In this document: positions 10,493 to 33,241 of the stretch, piece after piece
Numbering within the stretch: the first letter of the stretch is position 1
Layout: every line of letters starts with the position of its first letter
Origin: a virus
DNA length: 37,060 bases
Direction: 5' to 3' (one strand)
Virus record (IMG/VR): IMGVR_UViG_3300018080_000355
Location: 1-37,060 of that record
The notes under the pieces: model-generated
Seen by the model: only the letters and a program-made list of their open reading frames with translations
What the model was told of the DNA's origin: nothing
Database searches by the model: none
Translations under genes and position numbers: made by a program

Positions 10493-12265
10493 ATGAACAA
10501 ACCAAAATTTACAGTGGCTGTTATAGCCAAAAATGAAGAAGAGACATTACCTAGACTTGTTGGTTCTCTAAAAGAGTTCCAAGAAAGAGGTGGTGAAATT
10601 TGTGTTTTAGACACAGGCTCAACTGATAAAACAGTTGAAGTAGCTAAAAGCTTAGGTTGTAAGGTCGAAGCTGTTGGTGATAAGTTTAAAATCACCATCG
10701 ACGAGGACTTGGCTAACAAAATCAATGAAAAGTTTATTGTTGACGGAGAGGTTCCAGTAGTCAACCCAGGTGATACGTTATTCGACTTTGCTTCTGCTAG
10801 AAATTATCTAGCCACAATGCCGGAAAACGATATGATTGCTATGCCAGATTGTGATGAGATTTACACTAAGATGGATATTGATAAACTTAATCAAGTAATT
10901 GAAGACGGCTTTGAACAGTTAGAGTATAATTTTGTATTCTCTCACGATGAGCTTGGAAATCCAGTTATTAAGTTTAGGCACTGTAAGTTTTACGACCGCA
11001 GAAAGATGAGCTGGAGTGGTGTGATTCACGAAATTTTGGGTGGTCAAACAAAGAATATCTTTTTAGGTGAAGATGTTATCAAGTTGGAGCATTACCAAAA
11101 TGAAAAAACAAACCGTTCCGGTTATATCAAAGGTCTTGCCCTGGATTGTTATAACAATCCAGATAATGATAGAAACTCTCATTACTTTGCAAGAGAAATG
11201 CTTTACTTAGGTAGAACAAGGTCAGCAATCAAGGAGTTCAAGAACCATATTGCAATGGATAAATGGGCTACAGAAGCTGCACAGTCAATGTTGTATATCG
11301 GTGATTGCTATAAAAAACTTGGAGATACCGGAGAAATGCTTAAGTGGTATGCACTATCAATAGATAAAGAGTTAAGACGTGAACCGTTAATGAGATTAGC
11401 TGAATACTATTTTGGAAAAGGTATGCACAAACAATCGATTGCTTATGGTGAAGCCGCTTTAACAGTTACTCAATTACCTTTTTATTCTAATCATCAACCT
11501 TATTATGAACACGCTCCTCACGAGATGCTTTATGTTTCTTACTGGGCAATTGGTGATAAGGTTAAAAGTAAAGAGCATTGGCAAAAAGCACTGTCATTTA
11601 TTCCTAATCATCCTAAGTATTTATCAGACGCTCAATTTTATAATGACGTTGCTGTAGAGAAACCAGTTGAAGAAAAGAAAGAACAGCCTTTAATTTCATT
11701 TGTTATTCCAACACTTGGGAGAGAGGAAGGATTGAAGAGGTGTTTGCAATCAATTAGTAAGATAAATTATCCAAACAAAGAAACGATTGTTAAACACGAT
11801 AGTTTTGAAAACAGGATTGGTGTTCCAGAACTTGTTAAACAAGGCGTAGAAGAATCACACGGTGAATGGGTTGTGTTCGCTTCGAACGATACTGAATTTA
11901 CTCCAGAGTCAATCAATGAAGCATTAAAGGTTGGAGATAAGGGTTACGTTGCTTTCAATACTGGACCAGTCGGACCAGATGAAGGAAATATCAACGAACA
12001 CTTTATGATTCGAAGAGATATTATTGAAAAGATTGGAGAAGTTTTTGACACAGACTTCTATCACGTTGGTGTAGATAATTTATTATTAGCTAAAATGAGA
12101 AAGCTTGGTATTTTTAAGAGAGCTGAAAAAGCTATCGTTAATCATTACCATTTTTCAAAAGGAGCTAAAATGGACGAGGTCTACAAAATCGGTTGGGATG
12201 AAGTAAAGGTCGAAATGGACCGAGCTTTATTAGACAGAAAATTAAAAGAATTAAATAATTCATAA
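10493..12265 (+). CDS. Double GT2 glycosyltransferase with TPR-like middle
   Basis: 590 aa in three parts. Residues 1-190 are a GT-A family 2 domain: TVAVIAKNEEETLPRLVGSL, CVLDTGSTDKT, and a DxD-type MPDCDEIYT near residue 120. Residues about 200-390 are helical TPR-like repeats (YFAREMLYLGRTRSAIKEF, YIGDCYKKLGDTGEML). Residues about 400-590 are a second GT2-like domain (LISFVIPTLGREEGLKRCL, GEWVVFASNDTEFT). GT2 enzymes use nucleotide sugars. Among fibre genes it could glycosylate the Thr-rich collagen-like rods, or alter host surface sugars. Acceptor and sugar are unknown. Confidence 0.85.
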   Translation: MNKPKFTVAVIAKNEEETLPRLVGSLKEFQERGGEICVLDTGSTDKTVEVAKSLGCKVEAVGDKFKITIDEDLANKINEKFIVDGEVPVVNPGDTLFDFASARNYLATMPENDMIAMPDCDEIYTKMDIDKLNQVIEDGFEQLEYNFVFSHDELGNPVIKFRHCKFYDRRKMSWSGVIHEILGGQTKNIFLGEDVIKLEHYQNEKTNRSGYIKGLALDCYNNPDNDRNSHYFAREMLYLGRTRSAIKEFKNHIAMDKWATEAAQSMLYIGDCYKKLGDTGEMLKWYALSIDKELRREPLMRLAEYYFGKGMHKQSIAYGEAALTVTQLPFYSNHQPYYEHAPHEMLYVSYWAIGDKVKSKEHWQKALSFIPNHPKYLSDAQFYNDVAVEKPVEEKKEQPLISFVIPTLGREEGLKRCLQSISKINYPNKETIVKHDSFENRIGVPELVKQGVEESHGEWVVFASNDTEFTPESINEALKVGDKGYVAFNTGPVGPDEGNINEHFMIRRDIIEKIGEVFDTDFYHVGVDNLLLAKMRKLGIFKRAEKAIVNHYHFSKGAKMDEVYKIGWDEVKVEMDRALLDRKLKELNNS

Positions 12266-13942: not shown

Positions 13943-14794
13943 ATGGCAAAAACAAATCCGTTGATTCCTCGAGTTGATATTCAGCAACAGGAACAACCAA
14001 GCAATACAAGTGCGTATCAGTTGATTACTTTCGGTACTATTACTGGTGGCAGTCCTTATGCTGGTACTGACTATGCAAACATTTTTGCATTAGAATGTTT
14101 GCTTCAAGACACAGATGGTTCAGCTGTTTACCAAATGACTGGTACAGTTGCTAACCCATCTTGGTCTACCATTGGTTCTGGTGCTGCTGGTGCTACTGGC
14201 TATACCGGTCCTACTGGTTACACTGGTCCTACTGGCTATACTGGTTACACTGGTGCTGGTAACTTTACTGGTTATACTGGTTACACTGGTCCAGATGGTT
14301 CAGATGGTGCCACTGGTGCAACTGGTCCTACTGGTTACACTGGTCCTGACGGCGCCGCTGGTGCGACTGGCTATACTGGTCCTACTGGTTACACTGGTCC
14401 TGACGGTGCTGCTTCAGACACTGGTGCTACTGGCTACACAGGTCCTGATGGTCCTACTGGTGCTACTGGCTATACCGGTTACACTGGTGCAGATTCATCT
14501 GTAACAGGTCCTGACGGTCCTACTGGTCCAACTGGTTACACAGGTCCTGACGGTCCAACCGGTCCTACTGGTTACACTGGTCCTGACGGGGCAACTGGTC
14601 CTACTGGTTATACTGGTGCCGATGGAGCTGCTACAGCTACAGGTGCAACTGGTCCAACCGGTTACACTGGTCCAATCGGTGCTACTGGTTATACCGGTTA
14701 TACCGGTCCGGGAAACGGCTACAATGCTGGTCCTACTGGTCCTGTTCAAACAATTACTGTTGTGGACGGTCTAGTGACTGACATTCAAGTTTAG
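13943..14794 (+). CDS. Collagen-like fibre protein 3
   Basis: 283 aa. An N-terminal attachment region of about 78 residues ([18 protein letters not shown], then [24 protein letters not shown]) precedes about 190 residues of Gly-X-Y triplets ([12 protein letters not shown]). A short C-terminal domain follows ([16 protein letters not shown]), a frequent phage end motif. It carries the same style of Gly substitution as fibre 1 ([18 protein letters not shown]). Its codon choice differs slightly from fibres 1 and 2 (more GGTTACACTGGT), so it is an older paralogue or separately acquired. Confidence 0.85.
14180..14745 (+). repeat. Collagen-like repeat tract 3
   Basis: Gly-X-Y coding repeats dominated by GGT-TAC-ACT and GGT-CCT-ACT. 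There are two G-A-A-S/T-x-T-G breaks (14405-14434 and 14624-14653) and one longer break coding for GADSSVTG near 14488. Confidence 0.85.
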
Positions 14795-29428: not shown

Positions 29429-31822
29429 TTAATTATTATTATGCCAACCATTAACCTCATTAGCACTTTCATAGTCTCTTGTCTGTTTAATCCATTGAGG
29501 ACTTAAAGCAATACCCTGAAAACGAGACTCTTCACCACCGTGACCTCGAGGGATAAACTCGAAGCGATTATTTTTCTTTCCATAAGCAGTAACTTCTTTA
29601 GTGAAAGTGATGTTAGCTTTTGTTTTTCTACCACCTTCAGTGGCACTCCACCTCTTGTATTCGCTGTAAAGTACTGGAGTTTCAATACTACTAAACTCAT
29701 TAAGCACAACACATTGAGATAAAAAGCCCTCAACTGATGAGTTCTCTTCGCGGTATTCGTCAAGCATTTTGGTCTGTTCTTTTGTTACTATAAAATTTCC
29801 ACTTTCGGCTAAATCAATAGCTCCTTCAACCATCCAGTTTAGAATTCCGGACAATTCTTTAGCCAACAGTCCAACACTTGAACGAAGTTTAGTGTTTGGA
29901 TTATCGCGATAGTTATTTAAGAATTGCAAACAGCAAATTCTACGTTCGGTAGCAGTGCTAGTATCGTCAACTCTAGGGAGCAGGTTAACCGAGAATACAA
30001 ATTTAGCTTGCGGTCTAAATGTAAACTGCGGTTTATATTTTATATCTATAGTCACCTGTTCCCCAGATATTAACTTCTTAAGTTTGTTGCTTTGGTAGTA
30101 GTTTCCGTGAACCTCTTCAATAATATTCAATCTTTTACCAATCAATCCGTGCATACCAAATGCTCCATATAAACTTTCAAGGTCTATATGAGAAGTGGCT
30201 TCCGGTCCGATTATCATTGCGATAGTATCAATGAACGTTGATTTACCGTTTCCACCGTCACCAACCATAAATAAAGCACGGTCATAAAGCATTGAAGATG
30301 ATAAACAATAGCCAGAAAATTGCTGTAAAAGTCTAGCCTTATCTTCTTTTTCCTCACCTTCCATCCAGCTATCCAAACATTCTATCCACGTTGGGCAGGT
30401 AGCTTCAGGGTCATAGTTAACCGGATACTGAATTAACGAGACATAATCAGGGGTGTGTGGTCTCAACTCTTTTGTATAAATATTTAGTAATCCATTTTTT
30501 ACATTAGCAATATAACCACCGTCGTCCGATATTTTTAAAGGGGGAATAATTGAAAGTAAACAAGCAATTTTATCTGCTACATTTCTCTTGGTTCTGTAAC
30601 CCCAGAGCATATCATCATAGAGACCATTCAAAATCATATCGGAAATTTCTTGGTCTGACATCATTTTGTAAACGCCATTCCTATATTGAAAAATAATTCC
30701 AATTTCATTTTTTCTTAAGTGAGGGTGCTTAACTAAAATCTCTCGCTCATAATTCGAGAACCGGACCTTGTCTTGCTCCCGACGTTCCTTCATCACTTTT
30801 GTGTAAGTCTGTTGAATTTTCTGGTTCTCCGTTGGTGACATATTATAGGAGATAACCTCGTTCTTGTAAGAGTAGGAATACTGACCGGCGTAAGCACTCT
30901 GGAGTGTTCTCATAATTTCACCAGCTCCTCCGGCTTCGCTCTCCATTCCGTGCCAACCTATCTTGTCGATATGTTTAACAGCTTTATCAAAAGACCAACC
31001 AGCCTCCCTCATTAAGCAGGCGGTGATATGCAGTGTGGTATTTCGACCAACTGTTGGATATAAAGTTTCCGGTTTACCACTAATCAATGCTTTAAAACTA
31101 TCACGCTCTTCGATAGGGTAAAGTTCGTTGACTTGTTTGAAGAAGTTTGTGCGTTCAGCTTCAGCAAATTGTTTGGTTTTTTCAGCTTTCACCTCCACAA
31201 CGGTGTTTAAAGTTTGAGTCAAATCTTTGACATCAATAATTTCTTCAACATCGTTCATTGAGTATACTTTAGCAGGCATTTTGTGAATACCTTTTATCTT
31301 AAAGATACCTTTAGTTCCTTCTTTCCACTTATCTACTCCTGTCTTTTTCCAATACCAAGTGTTAGGCACCCTTAAGATACGAGGCACGTCTTTCACGACT
31401 GGGTCTGCGTCAAATTCTTTTACTATAGATTGTTCAATTCTTTCCCACCTTGCTACGGTTTTATTCCACTCCTCTGGAGGTAGTTCATCCTTATAAACAG
31501 GCTCATCTAGTAACCAATAAATATGGTAACCATTTTGAGTTTCAGTGATGAACGTTGGGCAGAACCTATCCTTAATTCTCTCAAGCTCGTCAAGGTCTTT
31601 TCGACCGTCAATGTCTACAAAAAAAGCATTTAAGTTTGTGCAATTTTCTTTTTGAGCATTTGGAGAACCGGCAAATCCGTTAACCGTAAAATAACTCTCA
31701 TAGCCTTCGAGATTTAATTGCGGTTTAATCTCCGTGCTTGAAACGGGAGGTCTACCAGCACCGGACTGGTCTATATATCTATAGACGTGGTCAGGGAAGA
31801 ATGTTAAAAATTTATCGTTCAT
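29429..31822 (-). CDS. Primase-helicase fusion (AEP primase and D5/SF3 helicase)
   Basis: 797 aa. The N-terminal archaeo-eukaryotic primase-like domain (RepB/primpol type) shows FFVDID (Asp70, Asp72), GYHIYWL (His100) and PRILRVPNT. A linker (about 160-320) leads to a D5_N-like region and an SF3 helicase with Walker A GDGGNGKST (521-529), a Walker-B-like NIIEEV and the sensor region FSVNLLPRVDDTSTATERR. This is the layout of phage and plasmid replication initiators that prime and unwind at their own origin. A long hairpin lies just 14 nt upstream of the start and may be that origin. Confidence 0.9.
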   Translation of the reverse strand: MNDKFLTFFPDHVYRYIDQSGAGRPPVSSTEIKPQLNLEGYESYFTVNGFAGSPNAQKENCTNLNAFFVDIDGRKDLDELERIKDRFCPTFITETQNGYHIYWLLDEPVYKDELPPEEWNKTVARWERIEQSIVKEFDADPVVKDVPRILRVPNTWYWKKTGVDKWKEGTKGIFKIKGIHKMPAKVYSMNDVEEIIDVKDLTQTLNTVVEVKAEKTKQFAEAERTNFFKQVNELYPIEERDSFKALISGKPETLYPTVGRNTTLHITACLMREAGWSFDKAVKHIDKIGWHGMESEAGGAGEIMRTLQSAYAGQYSYSYKNEVISYNMSPTENQKIQQTYTKVMKERREQDKVRFSNYEREILVKHPHLRKNEIGIIFQYRNGVYKMMSDQEISDMILNGLYDDMLWGYRTKRNVADKIACLLSIIPPLKISDDGGYIANVKNGLLNIYTKELRPHTPDYVSLIQYPVNYDPEATCPTWIECLDSWMEGEEKEDKARLLQQFSGYCLSSSMLYDRALFMVGDGGNGKSTFIDTIAMIIGPEATSHIDLESLYGAFGMHGLIGKRLNIIEEVHGNYYQSNKLKKLISGEQVTIDIKYKPQFTFRPQAKFVFSVNLLPRVDDTSTATERRICCLQFLNNYRDNPNTKLRSSVGLLAKELSGILNWMVEGAIDLAESGNFIVTKEQTKMLDEYREENSSVEGFLSQCVVLNEFSSIETPVLYSEYKRWSATEGGRKTKANITFTKEVTAYGKKNNRFEFIPRGHGGEESRFQGIALSPQWIKQTRDYESANEVNGWHNNN

Positions 31823-31835
31823 ACATTTTTGTTCT

Positions 31836-31946
31836 AATGTCGGGAGAGAGCAAACTAAAAGCAGTCAAGGACGCGGGTCAGGGAGGAATGTAGAAACCCA
31901 CCTGTTCGCTGTTATGACTGCTAATAGTCTGCTCTCCTCCGACATT
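31836..31946 (-). other. 111-nt extended hairpin before the primase gene
   Basis: Arms 31836-31867 and 31915-31946 pair over 32 positions: a 17-bp outer section (AATGTCGG...GAGCA), a 4-bp ACTA/TAGT block and an 8-bp AGCAGTCA/TGACTGCT block. On the - strand only one A-C mismatch and a double U-U interrupt them, with two G-U wobbles. The 47-nt centre has smaller stems AGG/CCT and GGGT/ACCC. It fills most of the 163-nt gap. It could be a replication origin, a structured RNA or an RNase III site. No T-run follows, so simple termination is unlikely. Confidence 0.7.
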
Positions 31947-31985
31947 CTTATTAGAATTCTACATTATCGGGGGAGATTTGAATTG

Positions 31986-32555
31986 TTATTCCTTTGGAGG
32001 CAATGCCTTTTTTCTAATTATCACTTGAGAATTCTTTTCTAGTACTTCCAACTGGTCACCATAGACAAGTAAGAAAGCGTCAATTCCGGTACGAGGGATT
32101 TCATAGTACCCCATTCCAACACCCCAAGTGTAGTCGTCGAATATCATTATACCATTTGACTTCAATAATGGGAACGCCAGGATTGCGTCTTCAAGTGCAT
32201 TTTTTGCTAGGTGTGAACCGTCAATGTAGATAAAGTCAAACTTCTTGTCAGAAACAGCTAGTACTTTTAGCATATCACCAGAAGCACCTTCAATAATGTC
32301 TACTCTATCTTTATAAGGCTCAATATTCTCTTCAAACCTTTCAAGCAAGTTCTTTTCATCAGGGAGGTCTTCACCACCTGCGAACGTATCAACTACAGTT
32401 AAGTCTGCGGAAGTATTTTTTAACATCCAGACAGAAGCTTGACCCTCATAGCAACCTACTTCTAGGAAGCTAGTATTGGGAGCTTGAGCTAGTGGTAATA
32501 AGTACTTCTCGAAGTTCTTTATACCTGTAATTTCGAACCAGTTATTAGTAAACAT
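31986..32555 (-). CDS. Class I SAM-dependent methyltransferase
   Basis: 189 aa from ATG 32555 (an upstream TTG would add five residues). Motif I is SFLEVGCYEGQAS, then LTVVDTF at the end of strand 2, RVDIIEGAS, and KFDFIYIDGSH followed by GIMIFDDYTW, as in the Methyltransf_24 group. These usually methylate small molecules, sugars or proteins rather than DNA bases. With a glycosyltransferase elsewhere in the genome, a role in modifying a glycan is possible, but its position in the early block gives no substrate. Confidence 0.8.
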   Translation of the reverse strand: MFTNNWFEITGIKNFEKYLLPLAQAPNTSFLEVGCYEGQASVWMLKNTSADLTVVDTFAGGEDLPDEKNLLERFEENIEPYKDRVDIIEGASGDMLKVLAVSDKKFDFIYIDGSHLAKNALEDAILAFPLLKSNGIMIFDDYTWGVGMGYYEIPRTGIDAFLLVYGDQLEVLEKNSQVIIRKKALPPKE

Positions 32556-32576
32556 AAGCTTAAAAGTCAATGTCTT

Positions 32577-33194
32577 CTACAGCATTCCGTCTTGAGGTTC
32601 TGTAGGAAACGGTGCTTCTTCAGAAGCTGGGGCTTCCGGAGTAGCGTTCTTAATTTGTTCAAGTTGAGGGATAATTTGAGTATTAACCATATTCTCTAAG
32701 AAGGCTAATCTCTTTGTATCGTCCCAAACCATTTTACCGTTGACTTGAACCTGCTCCATATCCGGCATACCATTTGGATTTTCTCTAGTGTAAGCGTGCT
32801 TCAGTACTTGACCGTCTTGATTGATAAACAAGGTACTCTTGTTTTTACCGTCTACTTCTTTAACGCTAGGAGATAATCTCATCTCTTTAGTTAAGTCAAC
32901 GTTAGGCAACATTTTTAGTAAAGCTGTTGCAAAACTGTTGGAGTAAGATAGTTGAAGAGTATATGGCTCTTCTTTATCTTGAAAGGTGAAGTTCCAAGTT
33001 TTGCCGTAGTCACCTTCTTGCGTTTTAATGTCTTTAAGTTTCCCTGTAAAGCTGTCATAGAATTTCTCGTGAACAACGTTCCCGATTTTATTAGTTCTAG
33101 TGACTGCTCCTTCAGTACCTTCCGGTACTCTTTGGCAGAATTTTCCGCCTAGTATGGTGATATAGTTACCACCTTGTCTTGTTTCTAGTCCCAT
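32577..33194 (-). CDS. Phage single-stranded DNA-binding-like protein
   Basis: 205 aa. Start at AAAAAACATATG (33194); an in-frame ATG at 33227 would overlap an operator palindrome and is less likely. The N-terminal beta-rich domain (GGNYITILGGKFCQRVPEGTEGAV, HEKFYDSFTGKLKDIKT, YGKTWNFTFQD) is OB-fold-like. A helical middle follows (LSYSNSFATALLKMLPNVDL), then an acidic flexible C-terminal tail (ASEEAPFPTEPQDGML), as in SSBs that recruit partners. It is close to replication genes and has the strongest promoter/operator region seen here. Confidence 0.6.
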   Translation of the reverse strand: MGLETRQGGNYITILGGKFCQRVPEGTEGAVTRTNKIGNVVHEKFYDSFTGKLKDIKTQEGDYGKTWNFTFQDKEEPYTLQLSYSNSFATALLKMLPNVDLTKEMRLSPSVKEVDGKNKSTLFINQDGQVLKHAYTRENPNGMPDMEQVQVNGKMVWDDTKRLAFLENMVNTQIIPQLEQIKNATPEAPASEEAPFPTEPQDGML

Positions 33195-33210
33195 ATGTTT
33201 TTTGGTTAGT

Positions 33211-33226
33211 TGATAGTTTACTATCA
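33211..33226. promoter_or_regulatory. Operator-like palindrome 1
   Basis: Perfect 7-bp arms TGATAGT (33211-33217) and ACTATCA (33220-33226) with a 2-nt spacer. A 2-nt loop is too small for a stable RNA hairpin, so a DNA site for a dimeric regulator is likelier. It lies in the 5' leader of the SSB-like gene. Confidence 0.6.
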
Positions 33227-33241
33227 TTGTTTAATTAAGTA

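What the first reader, a model, noticed from the sequence alone, without database searches (positions are those of the whole stretch)
31836..31946. Long near-perfect hairpin directly before the primase-helicase gene
Thirty-two positions on each side pair with few defects, in three blocks (17, 4 and 8 bp), and the 47-nt centre holds further small stems. In a genome with gaps of only a few bases, this 111-nt element fills most of a 163-nt gap beside the replication initiator. It is much longer than a terminator and has no T-run. It could be the replication origin, a phage non-coding RNA or an RNase III control site. I know of no matching named RNA family. TTCTAAT and ATTAGAA outside the arms may extend it.
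Basis: partly seen in the sequence, partly recalled or inferred. Interest (0 to 1): 0.85.

Follow-up and report, generated by a model that had tools for sequence, protein, structure and literature searches.

The report
Covarying self-complementary RNA hairpin beside phage primase
A little-known group of phages keeps a long hairpin next to its DNA-copying gene; the hairpin's sequence changes freely, but its shape and the match between its tip and the DNA just beside it are kept, which points to an undescribed RNA-based control or start site for phage replication.

Summary
The hairpin at 31836-31946 is real. It is the strongest inverted repeat in the window (RNA z = -9.5 on the primase coding strand). 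About 40 related viral contigs exist, and nearly all examined carry a counterpart in the same orientation next to the same primase-polymerase/helicase gene. The arms diverge, but pairing is kept: in ten aligned relatives 19 of 34 pairs change on both sides, and no shuffle equals this. Non-Watson-Crick pairs are G.U rather than A.C on the coding strand (85:20; control hairpins 278:352), so the folded molecule is single-stranded coding-strand nucleic acid, most likely RNA.

New here: the ~8-nt loop is exactly complementary to a stretch just 5' of the hairpin (window: TTCTACATT / AATGTAGAA), in many relatives with a second box matching the 3' strand of the internal loop. Loop and flank change together: about 19 changes on the primase tree. 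In the window's clade a third copy overlaps the primase start codon. Genes are inserted on either side without loss of the element.

Nothing matches in Rfam or the papers searched. The nearest known thing is the pRN1 stem-loop origin, which lacks the strand signature. I favour an RNA element of replication initiation (0.4); leader control and a DNA-only origin remain possible. No transcript or origin activity has been shown.

The parts
31836..31946 (-). long imperfect hairpin, about 39 pairs, main stem interrupted by internal loops
31887..31896 (-). apical loop TTTCTACATT; its TTCTACATT (31887-31895) is complementary to the 5' flank
31881..31902 (-). apical stem and loop, GGTGGG...CCTCCC
   Evidence: apical stem covaries in the group B relatives
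31957..31965 (-). 5' flank box 1, AATGTAGAA, exact complement of the loop; about 10 nt from the stem base
31822..31827 (-). 3' flank copy AATGTA, overlapping the first base of the primase start codon (AATGTATG)
   Evidence: covaries in L127/L132 (AATGCTATG)
29429..31822 (-). primase-helicase gene; D5_N and DUF5906 (SF3 helicase-like) domains by Pfam, N-terminal archaeo-eukaryotic primase (PrimPol) motifs by inspection
31986..32570 (-). methyltransferase-like gene (Methyltransf_24) between the probable SSB gene and the hairpin; present in this and some relatives only
32577..33227 (-). probable ssDNA-binding protein: relatives end in SSB-like acidic tails such as NPDDIPF; weak OB-fold matches

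Best explanation
SHOWN: a conserved, covarying coding-strand hairpin sits in the replication module (SSB-like gene, element, PrimPol-helicase gene). Its unpaired apex is kept complementary to its own flank(s) through about 19 sequence changes. INFERRED: the element is transcribed with the early operon and the hairpin RNA acts in initiation of phage DNA replication at this locus. The folded RNA presents its loop (and, in many relatives, the 3' side of the internal loop) to the flank sequence in trans, most likely the coding DNA strand at its own locus. This would mark or open the duplex next to the hairpin so that the PrimPol-helicase can load and prime, so the site acts as an origin with an RNA component. 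The PrimPol is the presumed partner only because the element stays next to its gene.
For: Fixed place and orientation beside the PrimPol gene in nearly all ~38 loci examined. Hairpins of this strength are at that place in 34 of 38 loci in 287 kb, with few elsewhere. Compensatory changes, 0 of 500 shuffles. G.U:A.C 85:20 against 278:352 in control hairpins, Fisher p 8.5e-13; 26 loci favour G.U, 1 A.C; an invariant U.G pair in 10 of 10 relatives. Loop/flank complementarity, mean 11.2 against 6.4 +/- 0.54 with flanks permuted among loci, never reached in 5000. Two boxes pair with the unpaired parts while the spacer does not match the apical stem (e.g. L027, L036, L030, L042, L043), as expected if the folded hairpin does the pairing. 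Loop motif and flank change together about 19 times on the tree. The loop-flank match tolerates almost no wobble (2 G.U: 6 A.C), unlike the stem, leaning to a DNA partner. Intramolecular pairing with the full stem would need a median of about 7 bp of fraying. The element survives a methyltransferase gene inserted on its 5' side (e.g. W, L010, L028) and HNH or other genes on its 3' side (L014, L020, L024, L036, L043), so it is not tied to one start codon. In the archaeal plasmid pRN1, with a related replication protein, a ~100-nt stem-loop is required for and can restore replication (PMC4234260).
Against: No transcript, protein binding or origin activity is shown. GC skew gives no origin signal. 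pRN-plasmid hairpins show no coding-strand G.U excess (2 G.U: 8 A.C) and no consistent loop-flank match, so the analogy is loose. Kissing RNA interactions are also often strictly Watson-Crick, so the lack of wobble does not prove a DNA partner. The start-codon copy in the window's clade suits translational control better. A single-stranded coding DNA strand would also favour G.T over A.C.
Confidence: 0.4

Rival explanations
1. RNA leader that controls expression of the primase (or the neighbouring operon genes): the hairpin loop pairs with the start-codon region or the upstream flank, in cis with a partly frayed stem or between two mRNAs, and so represses or switches translation or RNA stability.
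For: Sense-strand G.U signature; hairpin ends 4-35 nt before the primase start in most loci; in the window's superclade a loop-complementary copy overlaps or abuts the start codon, and in L127/L132 it changed together with the loop (AATGTATG to AATGCTATG).
Against: HNH or other genes separate element and primase in L014, L020, L024, L036 and L043 while the element stays intact. The other superclade mostly lacks the start-codon copy and keeps the 5' boxes. Cis pairing is strained.
Confidence: 0.27
2. DNA-only stem-loop origin of the pRN1 type: the hairpin forms in single-stranded or extruded DNA, and the loop and flank copies are recognition sites of the PrimPol on opposite strands, like the 8-nt template site of NrS-1 polymerase.
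For: pRN1 stem-loop needed for replication, structure kept without sequence (PMC4234260); NrS-1 polymerase needs an 8-nt template sequence, with copies reported on both strands (PMC7102993), and the copy found here lies in a hairpin-rich stretch just 3' of its primase gene. Loop-flank identity is strict, as for a recognition site.
Against: Strong one-strand G.U excess and an invariant U.G pair, absent in pRN hairpins and in hairpins of more distant phages. The two-box match skips the apical-stem spacer, which a simple duplicated site does not explain. The motif changes about 19 times within one family of closely related primases.
Confidence: 0.2
3. Trans-acting phage RNA that self-assembles: each flank pairs with the loop of another copy, giving dimers or chains, with a structural or counter-defence role unrelated to replication initiation.
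For: The loop-flank match is unique within the locus in most cases; antiparallel rods would place flank and loop together; structure without sequence conservation recalls phi29 packaging RNA.
Against: Strict link to the PrimPol gene; near absence of wobble in loop-flank pairs; no precedent in this gene context.
Confidence: 0.1

Closest known systems
Stem-loop replication origin of Sulfolobus plasmid pRN1 (ORF904 PrimPol-helicase), with a similar loop reported in phage BIP-1 (PMC4234260)
   Same: ~100-nt stem-loop beside a PrimPol/D5-type helicase gene; structure kept without sequence
   Different: Lies 3' of the gene there, 5' here; no coding-strand G.U excess; loop-flank match only in pRN2 (TTAACACGG/CCGTGTTAA), not consistent
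NrS-1 phage polymerase recognition site (TTTGGTTA; PMC7102993, PMC8718748)
   Same: PrimPol-helicase phage; short motif beside the gene, inside a repeat- and hairpin-rich stretch
   Different: Known as an ssDNA template site; no equivalent loop-flank architecture found
Bridge RNA of IS110 elements (PMC11208160, abstract only)
   Same: Structured RNA next to the gene of its enzyme, with unpaired loops complementary to nearby DNA
   Different: Guides a recombinase; different fold with two programmable loops; no recombinase gene beside the element here
phi29 packaging RNA (pRNA; from memory)
   Same: Phage RNA of ~120-170 nt, structure kept without sequence, intermolecular loop pairing
   Different: Loop-loop pairing, packaging motor; no Rfam match here
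ssiA/ssiB of RSF1010 (as described in PMC4234260)
   Same: Stem-loops recognised by a plasmid primase
   Different: Short, two sites, ssDNA; no loop-flank pairing known to me

Membership tests
pRN1-type stem-loop origin | beside a PrimPol plus D5/SF3 helicase gene | tested here: met
pRN1-type stem-loop origin | structure conserved, sequence not | tested here: met
pRN1-type stem-loop origin | located 3' of the replication gene | tested here: not met
   5' in all loci with the element
pRN1-type stem-loop origin | required for and able to restore replication | not testable with these tools
   needs genetics
Any Rfam 15 family | covariance model match at gathering score | tested here: not met
   (only weak miRNA-type hairpin matches and one sub-threshold match elsewhere)
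Structured RNA (general) | compensatory base changes beyond shuffles, strand-specific wobble | tested here: met
Structured RNA (general) | is transcribed | not testable with these tools
   no expression data
IS110 bridge RNA | associated IS110 recombinase gene | tested here: not met
   no such gene beside the element; the adjacent genes match primase-helicase, methyltransferase and SSB-like proteins
Intrinsic terminator | G+C-rich stem directly followed by a T-run | tested here: not met

The most novel reading that the evidence does not exclude
A phage replication origin that is addressed by its own transcript: a hairpin RNA with a two-part guide (loop and internal loop) base-pairs with the flanking DNA of its own locus and recruits or positions a primase-polymerase/helicase, i.e. 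RNA-guided initiation of DNA replication.
Probability: 0.18. Interest if true: 0.95.

Novelty: new variant of a known kind. Interest (0 to 1): 0.75.

Why it matters
How PrimPol-helicase replicons of phages and plasmids start replication is poorly understood; pRN1 needs a stem-loop but how it works is unknown. This element supplies a testable rule: a folded coding-strand hairpin whose unpaired parts match its own flank, changed together about 19 times. Swapping loop and flank separately and together would show whether base pairing drives initiation. If the partner is DNA, it would be an RNA-guided origin; if RNA, a new class of phage regulatory RNA.

Tried and rejected
Rfam at gathering and permissive thresholds: only sub-threshold matches, mostly miRNA-type hairpins. 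tRNA/tmRNA: none. DNA similarity in named phages: none; protein matches there are at most ~30% identical. Genomes of bacteria and archaea: only unrelated or weak matches, no host. Intrinsic terminator: no T-run. GC skew as origin signal: follows gene direction. Simple cis pseudoknot: linker too short and does not lengthen with the stem. Primer templated on the loop and moved to the flank (hepadnavirus-like): the spacer between the two boxes is not copied, so not favoured. Loop as an sRNA against other phage genes: motif unique to the element within each locus in most cases. Element detached from the PrimPol: two DNA pattern scans found real hairpins only in family contigs. Stem-loops in more distant D5 phages and in pRN plasmids: no G.U excess.

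Full report
Observation. On the coding strand of the primase (minus strand) it folds to -61.9 kcal/mol, z -9.5; on the other strand to -58.7, z -8.1; as DNA, z -6.7. By a strand-neutral score it is the strongest inverted repeat in the 37-kb record (28.3 against 19.8 for the next). The record is a virus record of 37,060 bases.

Context. The gene 3' of the element is a primase-helicase with D5_N and DUF5906 domains and, by inspection, PrimPol motifs at its N-terminus. On the 5' side lies a methyltransferase-like gene and then a probable single-stranded-DNA-binding protein: relatives end in acidic tails such as NPDDIPF, and a model (pLDDT 82) has its best, weak matches among OB-fold DNA-binding proteins (best E 0.0099, low TM-scores). 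The SSB assignment is therefore probable, not shown. Gene starts mostly lack Shine-Dalgarno sequences.

Relatives. Primase searches of viral contigs found about 40 contigs with proteins about 56-80% identical to the window's, then a sharp drop to 37% or less. Nearly all with sequence upstream of the gene carry a long hairpin in the same orientation. Hairpins scoring 20 or more lie at that place in 34 of 38 loci in 287 kb, with few elsewhere. L029 carries the element with a weaker stem; no counterpart was recognised in L033; L035 is unclear; L034 lacks the upstream sequence.

Structure is selected. In ten alignable relatives, 91.5% of cells pair, 19 of 34 pairs change on both sides, 0 of 500 shuffles reach either value, and sliding the partner destroys the signal. 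Over 31 loci the stems hold 85 G.U and 20 A.C pairs on the coding strand; hairpins elsewhere in the same loci hold 278 and 352 (p 8.5e-13), and 26 loci favour G.U against one. One U.G pair is invariant in all ten aligned relatives. This says that the coding strand folds as a single strand. RNA is the natural reading; coding-strand ssDNA is not excluded.

The loop matches its own flank. In the window, loop TTCTACATT is the exact complement of AATGTAGAA, 10 nt before the stem; this 9-mer occurs nowhere else in the record. Across loci, summed complementarity averages 11.2 nt against 6.4 +/- 0.54 with flanks permuted among loci, and 5000 permutations reach at most 8.1. In many loci there are two boxes: the second pairs with the 3' strand of the internal loop below the apical stem, while the A-rich spacer does not match the apical stem. 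Examples: L027 TATGGCACA-taata-CGATCAAA with TTTGATCG-ggg-TGTGCCATA; L036 ATATGGCCC-aaaata-CTACTAAA with TTTAGTAG-cgca-GGGCCATAT. The match thus fits the folded hairpin's unpaired parts. Most members of the window's superclade have a copy 3' of the hairpin at the primase start codon, and in L127/L132 loop, 5' copy and 3' copy all changed together. Nineteen motif classes need 19 changes on a primase tree. A few loci (L016, L025, L041) have only the 3' copy.

Who pairs with whom. Cis pairing with a full stem would need a median of about 7 bp of fraying, and linkers are not longer where stems are longer. The loop-flank match has almost no wobble (2 G.U, 6 A.C), unlike the stem. Both lean to pairing in trans, perhaps with DNA, but neither is decisive: the wobble count depends on the scoring used to find the boxes, and kissing RNA loops are also often strict.

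Independence from neighbours. A methyltransferase gene lies on the 5' side in W, and proteins with the same C-terminus in L010, L028 and some others. HNH or other genes lie between hairpin and primase in L014, L020, L024, L036 and L043. The element is intact in each. This argues against a function only as a primase leader.

Comparison. In pRN1, with a PrimPol-D5-type protein, a ~100-nt stem-loop 3' of the gene is required for replication and can restore it when moved; its sequence varies and its structure is kept; similar stem-loops were reported in phages (PMC4234260). The present element resembles this but lies 5', has the coding-strand G.U excess that pRN hairpins lack (2 G.U, 8 A.C), and has a loop-flank rule found clearly only in pRN2. 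NrS-1 polymerase needs an 8-nt template site (PMC7102993, PMC8718748); the copy found here lies in a repeat-rich stretch just 3' of its primase gene. No paper on this element was found in the library, which lacks most subscription journals.

Verdict. The structural finding is firm (about 0.95 in my judgement): a conserved, covarying coding-strand hairpin with a co-evolving match between apex and flank. The function is inferred: an RNA component of replication initiation 0.4, leader control 0.27, DNA-only origin 0.2, self-assembling RNA 0.1.

Noticed in passing
31877-31897 versus 31791-31812: The sequence around the loop (TTTCTACATTCCTCCCTGACC, minus strand) resembles the primase codons FLTFFPDH (TTTTTAACATTCTTCCCTGACC). 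It looks like chance, but it was not tested.
   Followed up: no
L031, L037, L038 upstream of the primase: A second long hairpin follows the first in tandem before the primase gene.
   Followed up: no
L145-L169, about 100 nt 3' of the D5 gene: More distant D5-helicase phages (many contigs of ~17 kb) carry inverted repeats with GTAGTTAACTAC-like cores just 3' of the gene, without G.U excess: possibly DNA-type, pRN1-like origins.
   Followed up: partly
31940-31975: In the window's clade the 5' flank (CTCCCCCGA) can pair with the base of the 5' arm (TCGGAGGAG), an alternative small hairpin that would show AATGTAGAA in its loop.
   Followed up: no
1-23708: None of the plus-strand proteins scanned matched a terminase, portal or capsid family in PHROGs or Pfam; not all were scanned. 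The record may lack the packaging genes or they are very divergent.
   Followed up: partly
10493-12265: 590-aa protein with glycosyltransferase matches among the structural genes.
   Followed up: no
13943-14794: Collagen-like (GPTG repeat) tail fibre protein matches.
   Followed up: no
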